A stretch of 40,642 nt of DNA from a virus: positions 1 to 40,642 of the IMG/VR virus record IMGVR_UViG_3300034684_000463; one strand, written 5' to 3'. Both the position numbers and the translations under genes were made by a program. Of the stretch, positions 1-28,247 are shown piece by piece; the first letter of the stretch is position 1, and every line of letters begins with the position of its first letter. The notes under the pieces are model-generated. The model saw only the letters and a list, made by a program, of their open reading frames with translations, was not told the origin of the DNA and did not search any database.

Positions 1-1017
1 TTACGCCTCGGCTCGGCGCGGTTTACTGGTCATGGCCGCTTTCCGGTCCGCCTTCTTGGTGTAGTGCTGCACCTCGGCGAGAGTGACGTGCCCGCACCAG
101 GACTGCATGACCAGCACCGATGCCCCGTGTTCGGCCAGCGTGTTCAGCCGGTATTTCCTCAGCCCATGGCCTGTCAGGCCATCCAGTCCCGCCGCGCGCG
201 CGGCGGACGAAAACCAATCCGACATGGCCTTGCGGGATCTCGGCCCGCCGTGGCTGCTGACGACGTAGACCAGGGCGCCGGTCGGCAGGATCTTCAGCAG
301 GTCGGCGCGCTGATGCTCCATCCCGAAGGCAGGGCAAGTCCAGGGCACATGTGCCGGGTTTCCGGTCTTCTGCTGGGTGTAGGTCAGGAGGCCGTCGCGG
401 CCGACCATCTGCGGGCCGAGGCGGGCGACGTCGCTGATCCGCGCTCCAGTCCACTGCAGCAGCTCGAAGGCCAGGCGCTGCGGCGTCTCCAGCCCCCAGT
501 GGGCGCGGAACGCCTCGACATCCGCCTGCGTCCATTCCTTGTGCCCGCCCGACTTGGCGAGCTTCTTGCGCTTCACGCCGTCGGTCGGGTTGGTGTCGAT
601 CATCCCGGACGCAATCCAGAAGGCGGCCATGTGCTTCCACGCCGACATTCGGGCCATCGCCACCGCCGGGGTCAGCGGCTCGAGGTTCGCTCTGATGTGC
701 TTCGGTCGGAGGTCGGCCAGCATCGCCTGCTCGCCCTGGGAGCGGATCGCCTCAACGTGGCGGCGGATGGTCGGGCGGTAGCCCTTCGACAGCTCCTCAT
801 AGGATCGGCTGGCCAGATAGGCCTCGCAGGCCTTCGCCACACTGCCGGATAGGGCGCGGCTCTTGCCTGCCGGTCGCTTCTGCTCCTCAGCGAGCCATGC
901 GGCGACAAAGGCGGGGTGATCCTCCGGGACATCGCGCGGCAGCTCGCGTCGGGTGCGGCGGTGGTACTTGTAGACCACATCGCCCTTCGTGACCCGGTGG
1001 ACGCGCGGTAGTCTCAT
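1..1017 (-). CDS. int: Phage tyrosine recombinase (integrase)
   Basis: This 338-residue protein would integrate and excise the prophage by site-specific recombination. The catalytic residues of the tyrosine recombinase family can be read directly: Arg193 in GARISD, Lys217 in QQKTG, the H-x-x-R box at His284-Arg287 (HGLRK), His310 in CGH, and the nucleophile Tyr319 in VQHYTKK. Residues 1-160 have the make-up of arm-binding and core-binding domains. I chose the ATG at 1017 over the longer frame because it overlaps the stop codon of the excisionase-like gene as ATGA, which implies translational coupling. The stop codon is the first triplet of the window, so the attachment site next to int is probably just outside. 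All catalytic residues are present, so the enzyme looks functional. Confidence 0.96.
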   Translation of the reverse strand: MRLPRVHRVTKGDVVYKYHRRTRRELPRDVPEDHPAFVAAWLAEEQKRPAGKSRALSGSVAKACEAYLASRSYEELSKGYRPTIRRHVEAIRSQGEQAMLADLRPKHIRANLEPLTPAVAMARMSAWKHMAAFWIASGMIDTNPTDGVKRKKLAKSGGHKEWTQADVEAFRAHWGLETPQRLAFELLQWTGARISDVARLGPQMVGRDGLLTYTQQKTGNPAHVPWTCPAFGMEHQRADLLKILPTGALVYVVSSHGGPRSRKAMSDWFSSAARAAGLDGLTGHGLRKYRLNTLAEHGASVLVMQSWCGHVTLAEVQHYTKKADRKAAMTSKPRRAEA

Positions 1018-1247
1018 CTCGCCCCGAAAGCCTTGTCGCATGAGTTTTCCCGCACCTCGCCCTCGGTCATGAGGGAATCGGCATAGGCGTCAAGCGCCAG
1101 ACGGTCATAGAGCCGCTTCCCGTCGAGCACCTTGCGCGCGATGGGAAGGCTGCGCAACTTCGTCTCGCTCACACCGATGTAGGCCGCAGCCTGCGCCGCG
1201 GGCAACAGGCGGGGCGGGTAGGAGATGCTGGTACGGGCGGTGGTCAC
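1014..1247 (-). CDS. Excisionase-like small HTH protein
   Basis: This 77-residue basic protein lies directly upstream of int. Its core, from PRLLPAAQAAAYIGVSETKL to DGKRLYDRLALDAY, has the winged-helix layout of AlpA/MerR-like excisionases: a 'layer-in' helix, a YIGVSETKL recognition helix, then a wing. I chose a GTG start at 1247, preceded by GAGGAG, because the longer frame to 1472 has a non-biological composition. The stop overlaps the int ATG, and the GTG overlaps the stop of the DUF4031 gene. The role as recombination directionality factor is inferred from fold and position. It could also be a transcriptional regulator of int. Confidence 0.8.
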   Translation of the reverse strand: MTTARTSISYPPRLLPAAQAAAYIGVSETKLRSLPIARKVLDGKRLYDRLALDAYADSLMTEGEVRENSCDKAFGAR

Positions 1248-24019: not shown

Positions 24020-24469
24020 ATGGCCAAACCCGTCACCGCAAAGTTCGGCGCCTTCGTCGTCAGCCTGTCCAACGGCGCGGAGCCCGCTGTGTTCGCCGCG
24101 CCCTGCGGCTTCACCTCGAAATCGCTGGTGCTGTCCAAGAACCTCGTCGAGGTATCGCTGCCCGACTGCGAAGATCCCGATGCGCCGATCTGGCTTGGCC
24201 GCGATGTGCAGAGCCTGTCGGCCGCTGTGACGGGCGAAGGGGTTCTTGCCGCCTCGGCCGTGCCGACGTGGCTCGAAGCCTTTGACAGCAACGACAGCGT
24301 CGAGGTTGAGGTGGAGATCACCTTCTCGACCGGCGTGCTGAAGTATCTCGGCCTGATGCACCTCGAGTCGCTGACGATCGGGGCCGAACAGGGCGGTCGC
24401 TGCACGATCAACGTCTCGATGCAGTCGGATGGCGAAATGGTCGGCACCTGGACGCCTGTCGCGCCGTGA
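24020..24469 (+). CDS. Major tail tube protein
   Basis: This 149-residue protein has the size and strand-rich pattern of siphophage tail tube subunits: AKFGAFVVSLSNG, LVEVSLPDCEDPDAPIWLGR, VSAAVTGEGVLA-like strands, SVEVEVEITFSTGVLKYLGL and MHLESLTIGAEQGGRCTINV. These correspond to the beta-barrel and loop of the lambda gpV/GTA tail protein superfamily. A strong ribosome binding site and a preceding hairpin agree with high expression. The stop overlaps the GTG of the chaperone gene. Confidence 0.85.
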   Translation: MAKPVTAKFGAFVVSLSNGAEPAVFAAPCGFTSKSLVLSKNLVEVSLPDCEDPDAPIWLGRDVQSLSAAVTGEGVLAASAVPTWLEAFDSNDSVEVEVEITFSTGVLKYLGLMHLESLTIGAEQGGRCTINVSMQSDGEMVGTWTPVAP

Positions 24470-24882
24470 GCCGCAGCGCGCAGATCACCCTCGACTGGGC
24501 GGATGGGACATTCCTGTTCGCCCTGAAATGGGGGCAGCTGGCAGAGCTGCAGGAGAAGTGCGACGCCGGTCCCTATGTCGTTCTCGGCCGGCTGGCGGAG
24601 GGCTCTTGGCGGATCGGCGACATCTCGGACACGATCCGGCTCGGCCTGATCGGCGGGGGCATGGCTCCGCTCGATGCGCTGAAAAAGGTTCGTACCTACG
24701 TCGAAGACCGGCCGCCCCTGGAGAATGTGCGGCACGCACAGGCGATCCTGTCGGCTGCGTTGCTCGGCGCACCGGATGAGCAGCCGGGAAAGCCTCGCGC
24801 GGGAAGCCGGAGGGCGACGCGCTCCCGCGCGGCAAAATCCGCTTCGCCCGGATCTACGGAACCGGCGCCGCCATCGGCCTGA
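24466..24882 (+). CDS. Tail assembly chaperone, short form (gpG-like)
   Basis: This 138-residue protein starts at a GTG that overlaps the tail tube stop. It reads ITLDWADGTFLFALKWGQLA, ELQEKCDAGPYVVLGRLAEG, IRLGLIGGGMAPLDALKKVR. This is the GTA-type 'gene transfer agent family' chaperone that coats the tape measure before tube assembly. After residue 109 (QPGK) the zero frame becomes low-complexity (RAGSRRATRSRAAKSASPGS). That is where the ribosome can slip into the T frame at 24786-24792, so part of the product should be a 190-residue fusion. Confidence 0.87.
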   Translation: MSRSAQITLDWADGTFLFALKWGQLAELQEKCDAGPYVVLGRLAEGSWRIGDISDTIRLGLIGGGMAPLDALKKVRTYVEDRPPLENVRHAQAILSAALLGAPDEQPGKPRAGSRRATRSRAAKSASPGSTEPAPPSA

Positions 24883-25037
24883 GTGTTGCAGAGGTCAACG
24901 CGATGTCGATCTGGGAATATACCTCGGCGGTGAATGGCTGGATCGAGGCGAACTGCCCAGATGAGGCCGGCAAGATCAGCGCCGAGGAGGAGGAGGGGCT
25001 TTGGGCGATGGTGCAGGCGAAGATGGGTGCTACCTGA
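24780..25037 (+). CDS. Tail chaperone T extension (-1 frameshift product)
   Basis: This frame has no early start codon. It opens right after a stop at 24777-24779 and reads LPRGKIRFARIYGTGAAIGL, SVAEVNAMSIWEYTSAVNGW, IEANCPDEAGKISAEEEEGL, ending at 25037. The coding-like sequence extends well before its first ATG (24903), which shows that it is reached by frameshift. The fusion would be join(24466..24792, 24792..25037), 190 residues, the equivalent of lambda gpGT. The T part binds the tail tube while G binds the tape measure in the lambda model. IGLSVAEVNAMSIWEY resembles the GTA second chaperone. Confidence 0.85.
   Translation, partial: AAGKASRGKPEGDALPRGKIRFARIYGTGAAIGLSVAEVNAMSIWEYTSAVNGWIEANCPDEAGKISAEEEEGLWAMVQAKMGAT
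24786..24792 (+). promoter_or_regulatory. Programmed -1 frameshift slippery site GGGAAAG
   Basis: The heptamer G-GGA-AAG lies exactly in the zero frame of the chaperone gene (codons GGA at 24787 and AAG at 24790). It is the same heptamer as lambda uses for gpG-gpGT. It comes seven bases after the last stop in the -1 frame, so slippage is possible without premature termination. Confidence 0.88.
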
Positions 25038-25500
25038 GCGCGTCCAACATCTGCTTGGCGCTGGAGGCTCCGTTTATAGTCTCGATCTGGAGCATCTGAT
25101 CATCCGGGACGCCGTGCCGGTCGCACGTCTCCGGAAACCGGCTCATGCCGATGATCTTCGAGACGGCCTCTGAAATGACCGCGTCCGTGCTGTCTGCCCC
25201 AGCTGTCGGAATGATGGTTACCGCGACCTTGCCGCCAGGCCGACGCTCCACCCGATAGCGGGTGAGAAAGGCAGTCTCTCCCGAGAGCGCCTCTGTATCG
25301 AGCGGCATAAACATTGCGCCTTCGCTGGCGCAGCCCGGTGAGAGCGTCACGATGCTCTCGCCAACCGAGATATCCCTCAGGGTGATCACCCCTTTCCATG
25401 CCCGATACTCCCCGGGCGAAACATCCAGCCGGAACTGCGCCTGCGCGCCTCCGGCAACCCCCGCGATCATCAAACTTAACAGCAGCATGGTCCTGTGCAT
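25030..25500 (-). CDS. Antisense secreted protein (moron candidate)
   Basis: This 156-residue protein begins with a clear Sec signal peptide (MHRTMLLLSLMIAGVAGGAQ, cleavage predicted after AQA at residue 21). A mature domain of about 135 residues follows, with two Cys (LSPGCASEG, FPETCDRHG) that could form a disulfide in the periplasm. Strands such as WKGVITLRDISVGESIVTL and GKVAVTIIPTAGADST suggest a beta-rich fold. It is transcribed against the tail operon. Its stop overlaps the chaperone T frame, and its ATG is 11 bases from the tape measure TTG start. AAGGGG precedes the ATG. The function is unknown, and lysogenic conversion or surface modification is inferred. Confidence 0.82.
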   Translation of the reverse strand: MHRTMLLLSLMIAGVAGGAQAQFRLDVSPGEYRAWKGVITLRDISVGESIVTLSPGCASEGAMFMPLDTEALSGETAFLTRYRVERRPGGKVAVTIIPTAGADSTDAVISEAVSKIIGMSRFPETCDRHGVPDDQMLQIETINGASSAKQMLDALR

Positions 25501-25511
25501 GGAGACGCCCC

Positions 25512-28247
25512 TTGGCAACTGATGTCGAAAAGCTGGTTGTCCAACTCTCTGCGGACATCAAGCAGTACCAGCGCGAGATGAACAAGGCCGTTGGGGTGTC
25601 GAACCGGCAGGCCAAGGCCGTCGAGAACCGCTTCAAGCTGATGAGCCGGAACCTCGACGGCATCGGCCGCAACGCGGCGCGGTCCCTGGTGACGCCGCTT
25701 CTCGGGATCGGCGCTGCGCTCTCGGTGCGAGAGGTGACCCGCTACGCTGACGCCTGGACCAATGCCAAGAACAGCCTGGCCGTGGCTGGCGTCGTGGGGA
25801 AGAACCAGGCCGACGTGCTCGACCAGCTGTATAACTCGGCGCAGAACAATGCGGCGCCGGTGGGAGCGCTCGCTGACCTCTTCGGCAAGGCGTCTCAGGC
25901 CTCGGATGTCCTAGGCGCATCGCAGGCGGATCTGATCAAGTTCAGCGATGGTGTCGCGGTGGCGCTGCGGGTGCAGGGCGGTTCCGCTGCCCAAGCGTCG
26001 GGCGCGCTGACGCAACTCGGTCAGCTGCTTGGTTCGGCGCGGGTGCAGGCGGAGGAGTTCAACTCGGTGAACGAGGGCGCGCGTCCGATCCTGATGGCGG
26101 TCGCCTCTGGCCTCGACGCAGCGGGTGGCTCGGTCTCCAAGTTGAAGACCCTCGTCAATGACGGCAAGGTCAGCGGCCAGCAGTTTTTCCAGGCATTCCT
26201 GAAGGGCCTGCCCGTCATTCAGGGCATGGCGGCGAACGCCACCACCACCATCGAGCAAGGCATCACCAAGGTCGAGAACGCCTTCACACGATACATCGGC
26301 CAGACCGACGAGACGCTGGGGGCTTCTCAGCGTCTAGTGCAGGGCCTCTCTGCCCTTGCAGACGATTTCGAGAACATCGCCGACATCACGCTCAAGGTGG
26401 CCGCGCTCATCGGGGCTGCCGTCCTCGGCCGCTCGATCGGGGGCATGATCAGCAGCCTAGGTTTTGCCGCGACCGCCGCCACTCGCTTTGTCGCAGCCAT
26501 CAGGGCCGCGAGCGCGGTGTCCGGTGTCGCCACGGCCATTGGCGGGCTCACCGCCGCCGCGGGGCCGATTGGGGCTGTGGTGGGGGTCGCCGCGGTCGGC
26601 GCGCTGATGCTCTACTCGTCCAGCACGGCAGACGCGAGAGAGGCTTCGGAGTCTTTCCGCCAGCGCCTTGACGCGATCAAGGAGGCTGCGCCGCAGATGG
26701 CGACGGCGGTGGAGGCGGGCGCGCAGCGGGCAAAAGAGGCGATGGCGAGCATCGGATCAATCGAGCTGCCCAAGCTGGTGCTGGAAAGCGATGAAGCCCA
26801 GGCGAACCTTGATGCCATTCGCGCCAATCTCGCCGAGGCGATGGTGCAGCTCGAACACCTCAACAGCCTTGGCGTCATCACCGACGAGCAGCGCCAGACG
26901 CTGGAGGAGTTCAACCAGAAGGTTCTCGACGGGACGACCAATGCGAAGGAGTTGGACGCAGCATTGATGAGCCTCGGCGCGATCAACGGACTGGGCCAAG
27001 GCCTTATCGACTCGATCACGCAGCTTTGGAACATGCTCAATCTGACCTCTGTCGCTGCCCAGAACGTCAAGGCTGACATCCAGGCGGCCCTCGGGGCTTA
27101 CGCGCCCGAGATGGGCCGGTTCGGGAACCCCTACGCCAAGCAGGAGGCCGAGGTGGCCGCGGTCCGCGCCGGCAAGGCTTATGTCGATGAGCAGAAGCGC
27201 CTTCAGACCCTCACGAAGGAGCAGCTGGCGCTCGAAACCGAGATTGCCAAACTCCGAAAGAACCTGCCGGATGGAGCAGTGGTGTCCGACGCCGAGCTGG
27301 CCGAGACGGCGCGTGGCAACCTTGCGGCAAACGAAAGGCGATCCGCATCGGGCGGCGCAAAATCCAGCGGCGGAGCCAAAGCCGTAGAGCGCTCGGATGA
27401 CAGGATCCTGAAGGAGATCGAGGGGCTGAACGCCGAGACTGAGGCGCTGAAATCTCTGACGCTCGGCCAGGACGAGTACGGCAACGCGGTCGCGCGCGCC
27501 CGCAAGGAAGCGGAGATGCTGCAGGATCTGCAGAACAAGGGCATCGCCCTGACGCCGGAGCTGCGTGAGCAGGTGCGCGCTCTGGCGGCTGACTGGTATG
27601 CGGCGGCGGAGGCAAACTCCGAGGCGACCGCCGAATATGAGCGGTTCCAGAGCGATCTGCAGGGCACCCGCTCGACGCTCGAATCTGCCTTCACCGGCCT
27701 GATCACAGGCGCGCACAGCCTTACCGACGCCCTGGGGATGGTGCTCGACAAGCTGGCGGAGATCGCGCTCAGCGCGGCGTTCGACGACATCTGGAGCGGC
27801 TTCCTTGGCGGCGCAACTGCGGGTGTCGTGAAGGGCGTCGGCGGCTATGCGACGGGAGGCTACACGGGGCCCGGCGCGCGGAATGCGCCCGCCGGCGTGG
27901 TGCACAAGGGCGAGGTGGTCTGGAGCCAGGACGATATCCGGCGCGCCGGCGGCGTCGGCACGGTCGAGGCCATGCGCCGCGGTGTCATGGGCTATGCCTC
28001 TGGCGGCGTCGTCGCGGCTCAGTTGCCGAGCATACCCTCGGCCGGGCGGATCGGGGCGATGGCCGCGCGAGCCGCTGCTCCCTCCAGCTCGATCGTGGTC
28101 GATGTGCGGGGCGCGACCGGAAACTCCGAGATCCGCCAGATGGTCGAGTCCGGGATCGGCGCTGCGATCACGAAGTACGACGCCCGTTTGAAGCCGAAGA
28201 TCCAGGGCACCATCAGCAATTCACGTCGATCCTGGGGGAGAGCCTGA
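25512..28247 (+). CDS. Tape measure protein
   Basis: This 911-residue protein fixes tail length and takes part in DNA ejection. I chose a TTG start at 25512 with GGAGA seven bases upstream. The resulting N-terminus MATDVEKLVVQLSADIKQYQ is the usual beginning of this family in alphaproteobacterial phages, and the longer frame to 25398 is a shadow of the antisense gene. Features are a helical N-terminus, the tape-measure core (VTRYADAWTNAKNSLAVAG, ALADLFGKASQASDVLGASQ, LTQLGQLLGSARVQAEEFNS), two hydrophobic stretches (about 305-385) that may insert in the membrane, long coiled coils, and a Gly/Ala-rich C-terminus (GGYATGGYTGPGARN). Confidence 0.93.
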   Translation: MATDVEKLVVQLSADIKQYQREMNKAVGVSNRQAKAVENRFKLMSRNLDGIGRNAARSLVTPLLGIGAALSVREVTRYADAWTNAKNSLAVAGVVGKNQADVLDQLYNSAQNNAAPVGALADLFGKASQASDVLGASQADLIKFSDGVAVALRVQGGSAAQASGALTQLGQLLGSARVQAEEFNSVNEGARPILMAVASGLDAAGGSVSKLKTLVNDGKVSGQQFFQAFLKGLPVIQGMAANATTTIEQGITKVENAFTRYIGQTDETLGASQRLVQGLSALADDFENIADITLKVAALIGAAVLGRSIGGMISSLGFAATAATRFVAAIRAASAVSGVATAIGGLTAAAGPIGAVVGVAAVGALMLYSSSTADAREASESFRQRLDAIKEAAPQMATAVEAGAQRAKEAMASIGSIELPKLVLESDEAQANLDAIRANLAEAMVQLEHLNSLGVITDEQRQTLEEFNQKVLDGTTNAKELDAALMSLGAINGLGQGLIDSITQLWNMLNLTSVAAQNVKADIQAALGAYAPEMGRFGNPYAKQEAEVAAVRAGKAYVDEQKRLQTLTKEQLALETEIAKLRKNLPDGAVVSDAELAETARGNLAANERRSASGGAKSSGGAKAVERSDDRILKEIEGLNAETEALKSLTLGQDEYGNAVARARKEAEMLQDLQNKGIALTPELREQVRALAADWYAAAEANSEATAEYERFQSDLQGTRSTLESAFTGLITGAHSLTDALGMVLDKLAEIALSAAFDDIWSGFLGGATAGVVKGVGGYATGGYTGPGARNAPAGVVHKGEVVWSQDDIRRAGGVGTVEAMRRGVMGYASGGVVAAQLPSIPSAGRIGAMAARAAAPSSSIVVDVRGATGNSEIRQMVESGIGAAITKYDARLKPKIQGTISNSRRSWGRA

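What the first reader, a model, noticed from the sequence alone, without database searches (positions are those of the whole stretch)
25030..25500. Secreted-protein moron inserted antisense between chaperone and tape measure
A signal-peptide protein gene runs against the tail operon in the tightest place possible. Its stop overlaps the chaperone T frame and its start is 11 bases from the tape measure's TTG. Genes here are normally co-directional and of fixed order. Opposite strand, export signal and lack of a tail role point to lysogenic conversion. Its transcript would be antisense to the T frame, and its ribosome binding site overlaps that of the tape measure.
Basis: partly seen in the sequence, partly recalled or inferred. 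Interest (0 to 1): 0.7.

Follow-up and report, generated by a model that had tools for sequence, protein, structure and literature searches.

The report
Swappable exported-protein slot in phage tails
A small gene for an exported protein lies backwards between two tail genes of a bacterial virus, and over a hundred related viruses show that this exact spot is a loading slot where unrelated exported-protein genes are swapped in and out, most likely to help the dormant virus shield its host from other viruses.

Summary
A 156-codon minus-strand gene (ATG at 25500, TAG at 25030-25032) fills the junction between the T frame (stop 25035-25037) and the tape measure (TMP; TTG at 25512). It is a real gene: a homologue in the same antisense position (L003, 57% identity) gives dN/dS 0.16, and a distant homologue (L145) is there too. 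It has an N-terminal signal sequence and two invariant cysteines in the mature part.

It is one example of something larger. Among 106 distinct relatives collected mainly by their chaperone gene, 13 have an empty T/TMP junction and 93 carry an insert. The longest insert ORF is antisense in 86 of 93. The antisense proteins fall into 38 BLAST families; 80 of 93 have a hydrophobic N-terminus, against 17-20% of controls. Phages with TMP N-termini at least 90% identical usually carry different cargo (32 of 44 pairs). So this is a cassette-exchange slot.

Best reading: a lysogeny-strand moron, most likely superinfection exclusion acting in the envelope, as HK97 gp15 does from the same junction (but co-directionally). 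The function is inferred. No promoter or terminator was identified in the window. New variant of a known kind.

The parts
24466..24882 (+). tail assembly chaperone (G-like, Phage_TAC_11 / GTA-gp10 family)
   Evidence: Pfam PF11836 E=1.1e-23; phrog_8985 E=1.2e-48
24786..24792 (+). GGGAAAG slippery heptamer, in phase for a -1 shift into the T frame
   Evidence: sequence; GGGAAAG found in 10 of 106 loci
24834..25037 (+). T frame (tail chaperone C-terminal extension), stop TGA 25035-25037; the left edge of the slot
   Evidence: conserved T-frame homologues in the relatives by tblastn
25030..25500 (-). slot cargo: gene for a 156-aa exported protein; predicted signal sequence residues 1-21, two invariant Cys (57, 126)
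   Evidence: homologues L003 and L145 in the same antisense position; dN/dS 0.16
25508..25513 (-). candidate Shine-Dalgarno AAGGGG of the antisense gene, overlapping the TMP start codon by 2 nt
   Evidence: sequence; inference
25502..25505 (+). candidate Shine-Dalgarno GGAG of the tape measure gene
   Evidence: sequence; inference
25512..28247 (+). tape measure protein gene, TTG start; the right edge of the slot
   Evidence: Pfam TMP_3 E=1.2e-48; phrog_17300 E=4.4e-84
4..1041 (-). tyrosine integrase gene (temperate phage), same strand as the cargo gene
   Evidence: phrog_1 E=2.1e-26; PF00589 E=6e-16

Best explanation
The T/TMP junction of this family of alphaproteobacterial temperate siphophages is a cargo slot. 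In the window it holds an antisense gene for a secreted (periplasmic, probably disulphide-bonded) protein. Shown here: the gene is real, under purifying selection, accessory, exchanged as a cassette with sharp edges at the T stop and the TMP start, and normally on the minus (integrase) strand. Inferred: it is transcribed from the prophage while the late operon is silent, and its exported product protects the lysogen by superinfection exclusion, interfering in the periplasm with the injection step that incoming siphophages' tape measure proteins carry out. The antisense position would let late transcription through T-TMP turn the gene down during lytic growth, as in a noncontiguous operon. Anatomy and slot: about 0.9 likely. 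Superinfection exclusion as the function: about 0.5.
For: Real gene: dN/dS 0.16. Homologues (L003, L145) sit in the same antisense slot, and among 394 genomes of the bacterial family of L145 only L145's own genome matched clearly, plus one E=8e-4 hit. Slot: 93 of 106 loci filled, longest insert ORF antisense in 86, 38 families. N-terminal hydrophobic segment in 80/93, against 168/839 chance antisense ORFs, 21/119 sense ORFs in the gap and 106/612 sense ORFs upstream. Exchange: 32 of 44 pairs with TMP N-terminus at least 90% identical carry different families, with edges at the T end and the TMP start. Two cargo families searched against 50,697 phage records hit only this slot, and the four strongest hits of one family in 394 genomes of one bacterial family all lie in the slot. 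Temperate association. Long-spacer loci have antisense promoter-like sequences (9 or more of 12 matches in 14/41, against 1/41 on the sense strand and 5% of shuffles). [quoted passage not shown] Tab targets TMP (PMC10884400); phi80 tai is an antisense immunity gene in the late operon (PMC11364771).
Against: No functional data. No family in Pfam, PADLOC, NCBIfam, PHROGs or PDB for the window protein. No promoter-like sequence at 24400-25900 and no terminator below the gene; short-spacer loci, the window's class, show no promoter enrichment. No sequence similarity to HK97 gp15. The same cargo families occur with very different TMPs, so there is no sign of cargo-TMP co-evolution. In phi80 the antisense immunity protein stayed at the same level after induction and fell only when Q was overproduced (PMC11364771), so the switch-off step is weak even in the precedent.
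Confidence: 0.5

Rival explanations
1. Exported lysogenic-conversion factor unrelated to phage exclusion: it changes the host envelope or fitness, and the T/TMP junction is simply a tolerated insertion point in the late operon.
For: Cargo families are diverse, one being VasI-like, and some inserts are clearly not small exported proteins (the exonuclease/BRCT-like sense ORF in L013, by eye; large inserts in L136-L138). No defence family hit.
Against: The strong bias to small exported or membrane proteins next to TMP and the fast exchange look like an arms race. HK97 gp15 at the same junction is an exclusion protein.
Confidence: 0.35
2. Structural or assembly role: the product is a tail component or a periplasmic helper for the phage's own tape measure during injection.
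For: Immediate neighbourhood of TMP; export signal.
Against: Absent in 13 of 106 relatives and in homologous integrase-less phages, replaced by unrelated families beside near-identical TMPs; antisense to the late operon.
Confidence: 0.05
3. The antisense arrangement itself is the function: transcription interferes with T/TMP expression in the lysogen, and the protein is secondary.
For: Orientation is antisense in most loci, and in long-spacer loci a candidate -35 coincides with the TMP start codons.
Against: Purifying selection on the protein; conserved signal sequences in unrelated families; empty-slot prophages exist.
Confidence: 0.07
4. Chance ORF in GC-rich DNA.
For: GC-rich genome with many spurious long ORFs.
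Against: dN/dS 0.16, third-position bias, sense frames of the same DNA broken by stops; homologues in the same place.
Confidence: 0.01

Closest known systems
HK97 gp15 moron (superinfection exclusion)
   Same: Single small accessory gene exactly between the frameshifted tail chaperones and the tape measure; product acts at the envelope; exclusion depends on the tail/TMP region of the target phage (PMC10883804).
   Different: Co-directional with the tail operon and followed by an annotated putative terminator; unrelated sequence; not described as one of dozens of exchangeable families.
phi80 TaiEcA noncontiguous operon
   Same: Prophage immunity gene antisense within the late operon, expressed in the lysogen (PMC11364771).
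   Different: Lies upstream of the packaging module, blocks tail assembly, and has a counter-defence partner; no partner gene was looked for here.
Tab of Pseudomonas phage JBD26
   Same: Moron in the late operon that acts on the tape measure protein of incoming phages (PMC10884400).
   Different: Blocks virion assembly rather than injection; encoded elsewhere in the late operon.
TP-J34 Ltp lipoprotein
   Same: Exported prophage protein whose exclusion can be escaped through TMP changes (PMC10883804).
   Different: Lipoprotein of a Gram-positive phage; location and sequence not compared here.

Membership tests
Moron (accessory prophage gene) | present in some relatives, absent in close ones, precise junction when absent | tested here: met
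   13 of 106 junctions empty, e.g. L004, where T and TMP overlap by 11 nt
Moron (accessory prophage gene) | own promoter and terminator | tested here: inconclusive
   none found in the window; promoter-like enrichment only in long-spacer relatives
Moron (accessory prophage gene) | expressed from the repressed prophage | not testable with these tools
   needs RNA-seq of a lysogen
HK97 gp15-type superinfection exclusion | lies between tail chaperone and tape measure genes | tested here: met
HK97 gp15-type superinfection exclusion | sequence homology to gp15 | tested here: not met
   no BLASTP alignment
HK97 gp15-type superinfection exclusion | same direction as the tail operon | tested here: not met
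   window gene is on the minus strand; gp15 is on the plus strand
HK97 gp15-type superinfection exclusion | blocks DNA entry of related phages | not testable with these tools
   needs plating tests
Noncontiguous-operon immunity (phi80 tai) | immunity gene antisense inside the late operon | tested here: inconclusive
   orientation and position fit; immunity function itself not shown
Noncontiguous-operon immunity (phi80 tai) | counter-defence gene on the sense strand | not tested
   no search for a partner gene was made
Known defence families (PADLOC) | profile match | tested here: not met
   no hit for the window protein or nine other slot proteins

The most novel reading that the evidence does not exclude
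A family-wide cartridge system: temperate siphophages of Alphaproteobacteria keep a dedicated antisense slot between the tail chaperone and the tape measure, through which dozens of unrelated, mostly undescribed exported superinfection-exclusion proteins are exchanged between nearly identical phages. In part of the family the slot uses a conserved two-way element in which the tape measure's start codons serve as the -35 box of the antisense promoter, so late transcription silences the phage's own exclusion gene.
Probability: 0.35. Interest if true: 0.75.

Novelty: new variant of a known kind. Interest (0 to 1): 0.6.

Why it matters
The slot gives a positional handle for finding candidate envelope-acting phage-exclusion proteins: 38 families from about 100 loci, most without any database name. 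Because many pairs of phages differ in cargo while sharing a near-identical tape measure, whether the cargo sets exclusion specificity can be tested directly. It also suggests why a gene may be kept antisense in a late operon: expressed in the lysogen, turned down by late transcription.

Tried and rejected
Direct homologue searches with the window protein in IMG/VR, phages and plasmids found nothing significant; the family is small, and L003 and L145 surfaced only through the position-based survey. Fold comparison: two AlphaFold models (pLDDT 66.5 and 64.7) gave no PDB match (VIA-align best Z 2.6). The one good BFVD match (A0A6G5YFK0, E=1.1e-6, 23% identity) has no name and could not be placed. 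A consensus promoter and a terminator for the window gene were sought and not found. A terminator-like hairpin at 25315-25332 (-) lies inside the gene and was set aside as likely chance. I considered the cargo family beginning MGIQKKRMFCEEE as an Imm-like superinfection immunity protein; Pfam gives no significant hit, so no claim is made. The idea that only virulent relatives lack cargo is wrong: integrase-bearing relatives with an empty slot exist (e.g. the Labrenzia phage, L059, L119).

Full report
What is there. The window is a 40,642-base virus record with a tyrosine integrase at its left end on the minus strand and a plus-strand head-tail module. Between the T frame (stop TGA 25035-25037) and the tape measure gene (TMP; TTG 25512) lies a minus-strand gene, ATG at 25500 and TAG at 25032-25030, coding 156 residues. 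Its stop overlaps the T frame by 8 nt, and 11 bases separate its ATG from the TMP start. The upstream gene is a GTA-gp10-like tail chaperone (PF11836, E=1.1e-23) and the downstream one is a tape measure (PF20155, E=1.2e-48). A GGGAAAG slippery heptamer at 24786-24792 is in phase for a -1 shift into the T frame.

It is a real gene. A homologue in IMG/VR contig L003 (57% identity) lies antisense in the same junction. The codon alignment gives pN 0.26, pS 0.70, dN/dS 0.16, with differences of 43, 32 and 95 at codon positions 1, 2 and 3; all three sense frames of the same DNA hold stops. Synonymous sites are near saturation, so the ratio is approximate, but the third-position bias does not depend on it. 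A distant homologue (25% identity, E=1e-11 in a pairwise test) sits antisense in the same junction of a Pseudogemmobacter faecipullorum prophage, L145. All three start with a hydrophobic signal-like segment, and all share Cys57 and Cys126. Direct searches find no other members in phages, plasmids, IMG/VR or the other genomes sampled from the family of L145, apart from one marginal hit. The protein matches no family in Pfam, PHROGs, PADLOC, NCBIfam or PDB sequences. Its predicted structure is of middling confidence and has no PDB match.

The junction is a cargo slot. I collected relatives mainly by the chaperone gene, not by the cargo, so the sample is not biased towards cargo (plus tape-measure relatives and annotated phages). 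Of 106 distinct junctions, 13 have T and TMP abutting or within 35 bp, and 93 hold an insert of more than 100 bp; the longest insert ORF is antisense in 86. Several of the seven exceptions also hold a plausible antisense gene (L021, L022, L097). Grouping phages at 90% TMP identity to reduce redundancy leaves 75 groups: 58 antisense only, 5 mixed, 1 sense only and 11 empty. The antisense proteins fall into 38 BLAST families. A hydrophobic 12-mer near the N-terminus is present in 80 of 93, against 168 of 839 chance antisense ORFs over tail genes, 21 of 119 sense ORFs in the gap and 106 of 612 sense ORFs upstream. Independent annotators had marked such genes, as hypothetical proteins, in Mesorhizobium phage vB_MseS-P1, Rhizobium phages RHph_X2_25 and RHph_TM3_3_14B and Paracoccus phage Pthi1.

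The cargo is exchanged. Among 44 pairs of phages whose TMP N-termini (320 aa) are at least 90% identical, 32 carry different cargo families, 8 the same, 3 one empty and 1 both empty. L020 and L072 have identical TMP N-termini and unrelated cargo. L002, whose TMP N-terminus is 91% identical to the window's, carries an unrelated membrane protein. In the pairs inspected, similarity falls off at the last codons of T and resumes at the TMP start; in 25 of 93 loci the cargo stop overlaps the T stop by exactly 4 nt. In the empty form L004, T runs 11 nt into TMP. The same cargo family also occurs beside very different TMPs: family 0 is in eight TMP groups at 70%. Two cargo families searched in 50,697 phage records hit only this junction. 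In 394 genomes of the bacterial family of L123 (Mesorhizobium), the four strongest hits to cargo family 0 all lie in the slot, and four weak ones do not.

Lifestyle. The named phages with cargo have integrase hits (one of them, RHph_X2_25, below the curated cut-off), and five named phages with homologous TMPs but no integrase found (Pseudomonas JG012, Roseobacter RDJL3, Achromobacter maay_LB1, Rhizobium RHph_X2_26, Acinetobacter HD01) have no antisense gene there. Integrase-bearing phages can also be empty (Labrenzia phage). The numbers are small, but they fit a moron.

Expression. No sigma-70-like promoter or terminator was found around the window gene. Relatives with a longer spacer between the antisense start and TMP do show one: in 14 of 41 loci there is a promoter-like pair with at least 9 of 12 matches on the antisense strand, against 1 of 41 on the sense strand and 5% of shuffles. 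It usually consists of TTGCCA, the reverse complement of the TMP start codons ATGGCAA, followed 16 nt later by a GATAAT- or TATAAA-like hexamer next to the TMP ribosome binding site. These are consensus matches only. Because the backbone is shared by descent among these phages, they are not independent, and the window itself lacks this element.

Mechanism. Shown: a real, selected, exported-type, accessory and exchangeable gene on the integrase strand. Inferred: prophage expression, export, and superinfection exclusion at the injection step. The inference rests on position and precedent. [quoted passage not shown] TP-J34 Ltp exclusion is overcome by tape measure changes (PMC10883804). Tab acts on the tape measure of incoming phages (PMC10884400). 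SNIPE associates with tape measure proteins during injection (PMC13190303). The antisense placement has a precedent in phi80 taiEcA, which interrupts the Q-driven late operon, is made in the lysogen, and fell when Q was overproduced (PMC11364771). The main rival is host-directed lysogenic conversion using a tolerated insertion point.

Limits. Cargo start codons and families were assigned by simple rules. The signal-sequence test is a hydrophobicity threshold, not a trained predictor. Some IMG/VR contigs may be near-duplicates. The literature search covered open-access papers only, and I found no description of this slot there.

Noticed in passing
L013:2472-3482: The slot in this contig holds, besides an antisense exported-protein gene, a sense ORF of 336 aa that by eye looks like a DnaQ-type exonuclease with a BRCT-like part.
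   Followed up: no
L012, L018, L029, L110 (slot): One cargo family is VasI-like (PF11319, E=5e-16), a name otherwise tied to type VI secretion; here it is an exported phage protein.
   Followed up: partly
L013, L020, L022, L026 and similar loci, about 30 bp before TMP: Conserved element (ATTATCAGGACACAATCCTAAATGGCAAC-like) shared by different cargo families: TMP ribosome binding site on one strand, promoter-like -10/-35 on the other, the -35 being the TMP start codons.
   Followed up: partly
window:24786-24792: GGGAAAG slippery heptamer as in lambda G-T; found in only 10 of 106 relatives (18 have another X XXY YYZ heptamer, 78 none), so the way T is made seems to vary in this family.
   Followed up: partly
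L136, L137, L138 (Brucella and relatives): Much larger inserts (1.5-3 kb) in the same junction, with room for several genes.
   Followed up: no
L165, L166, L167, L168: Weak relatives of cargo family 0 without the tail genes of this family nearby, in genomes of the bacterial family of L123.
   Followed up: no
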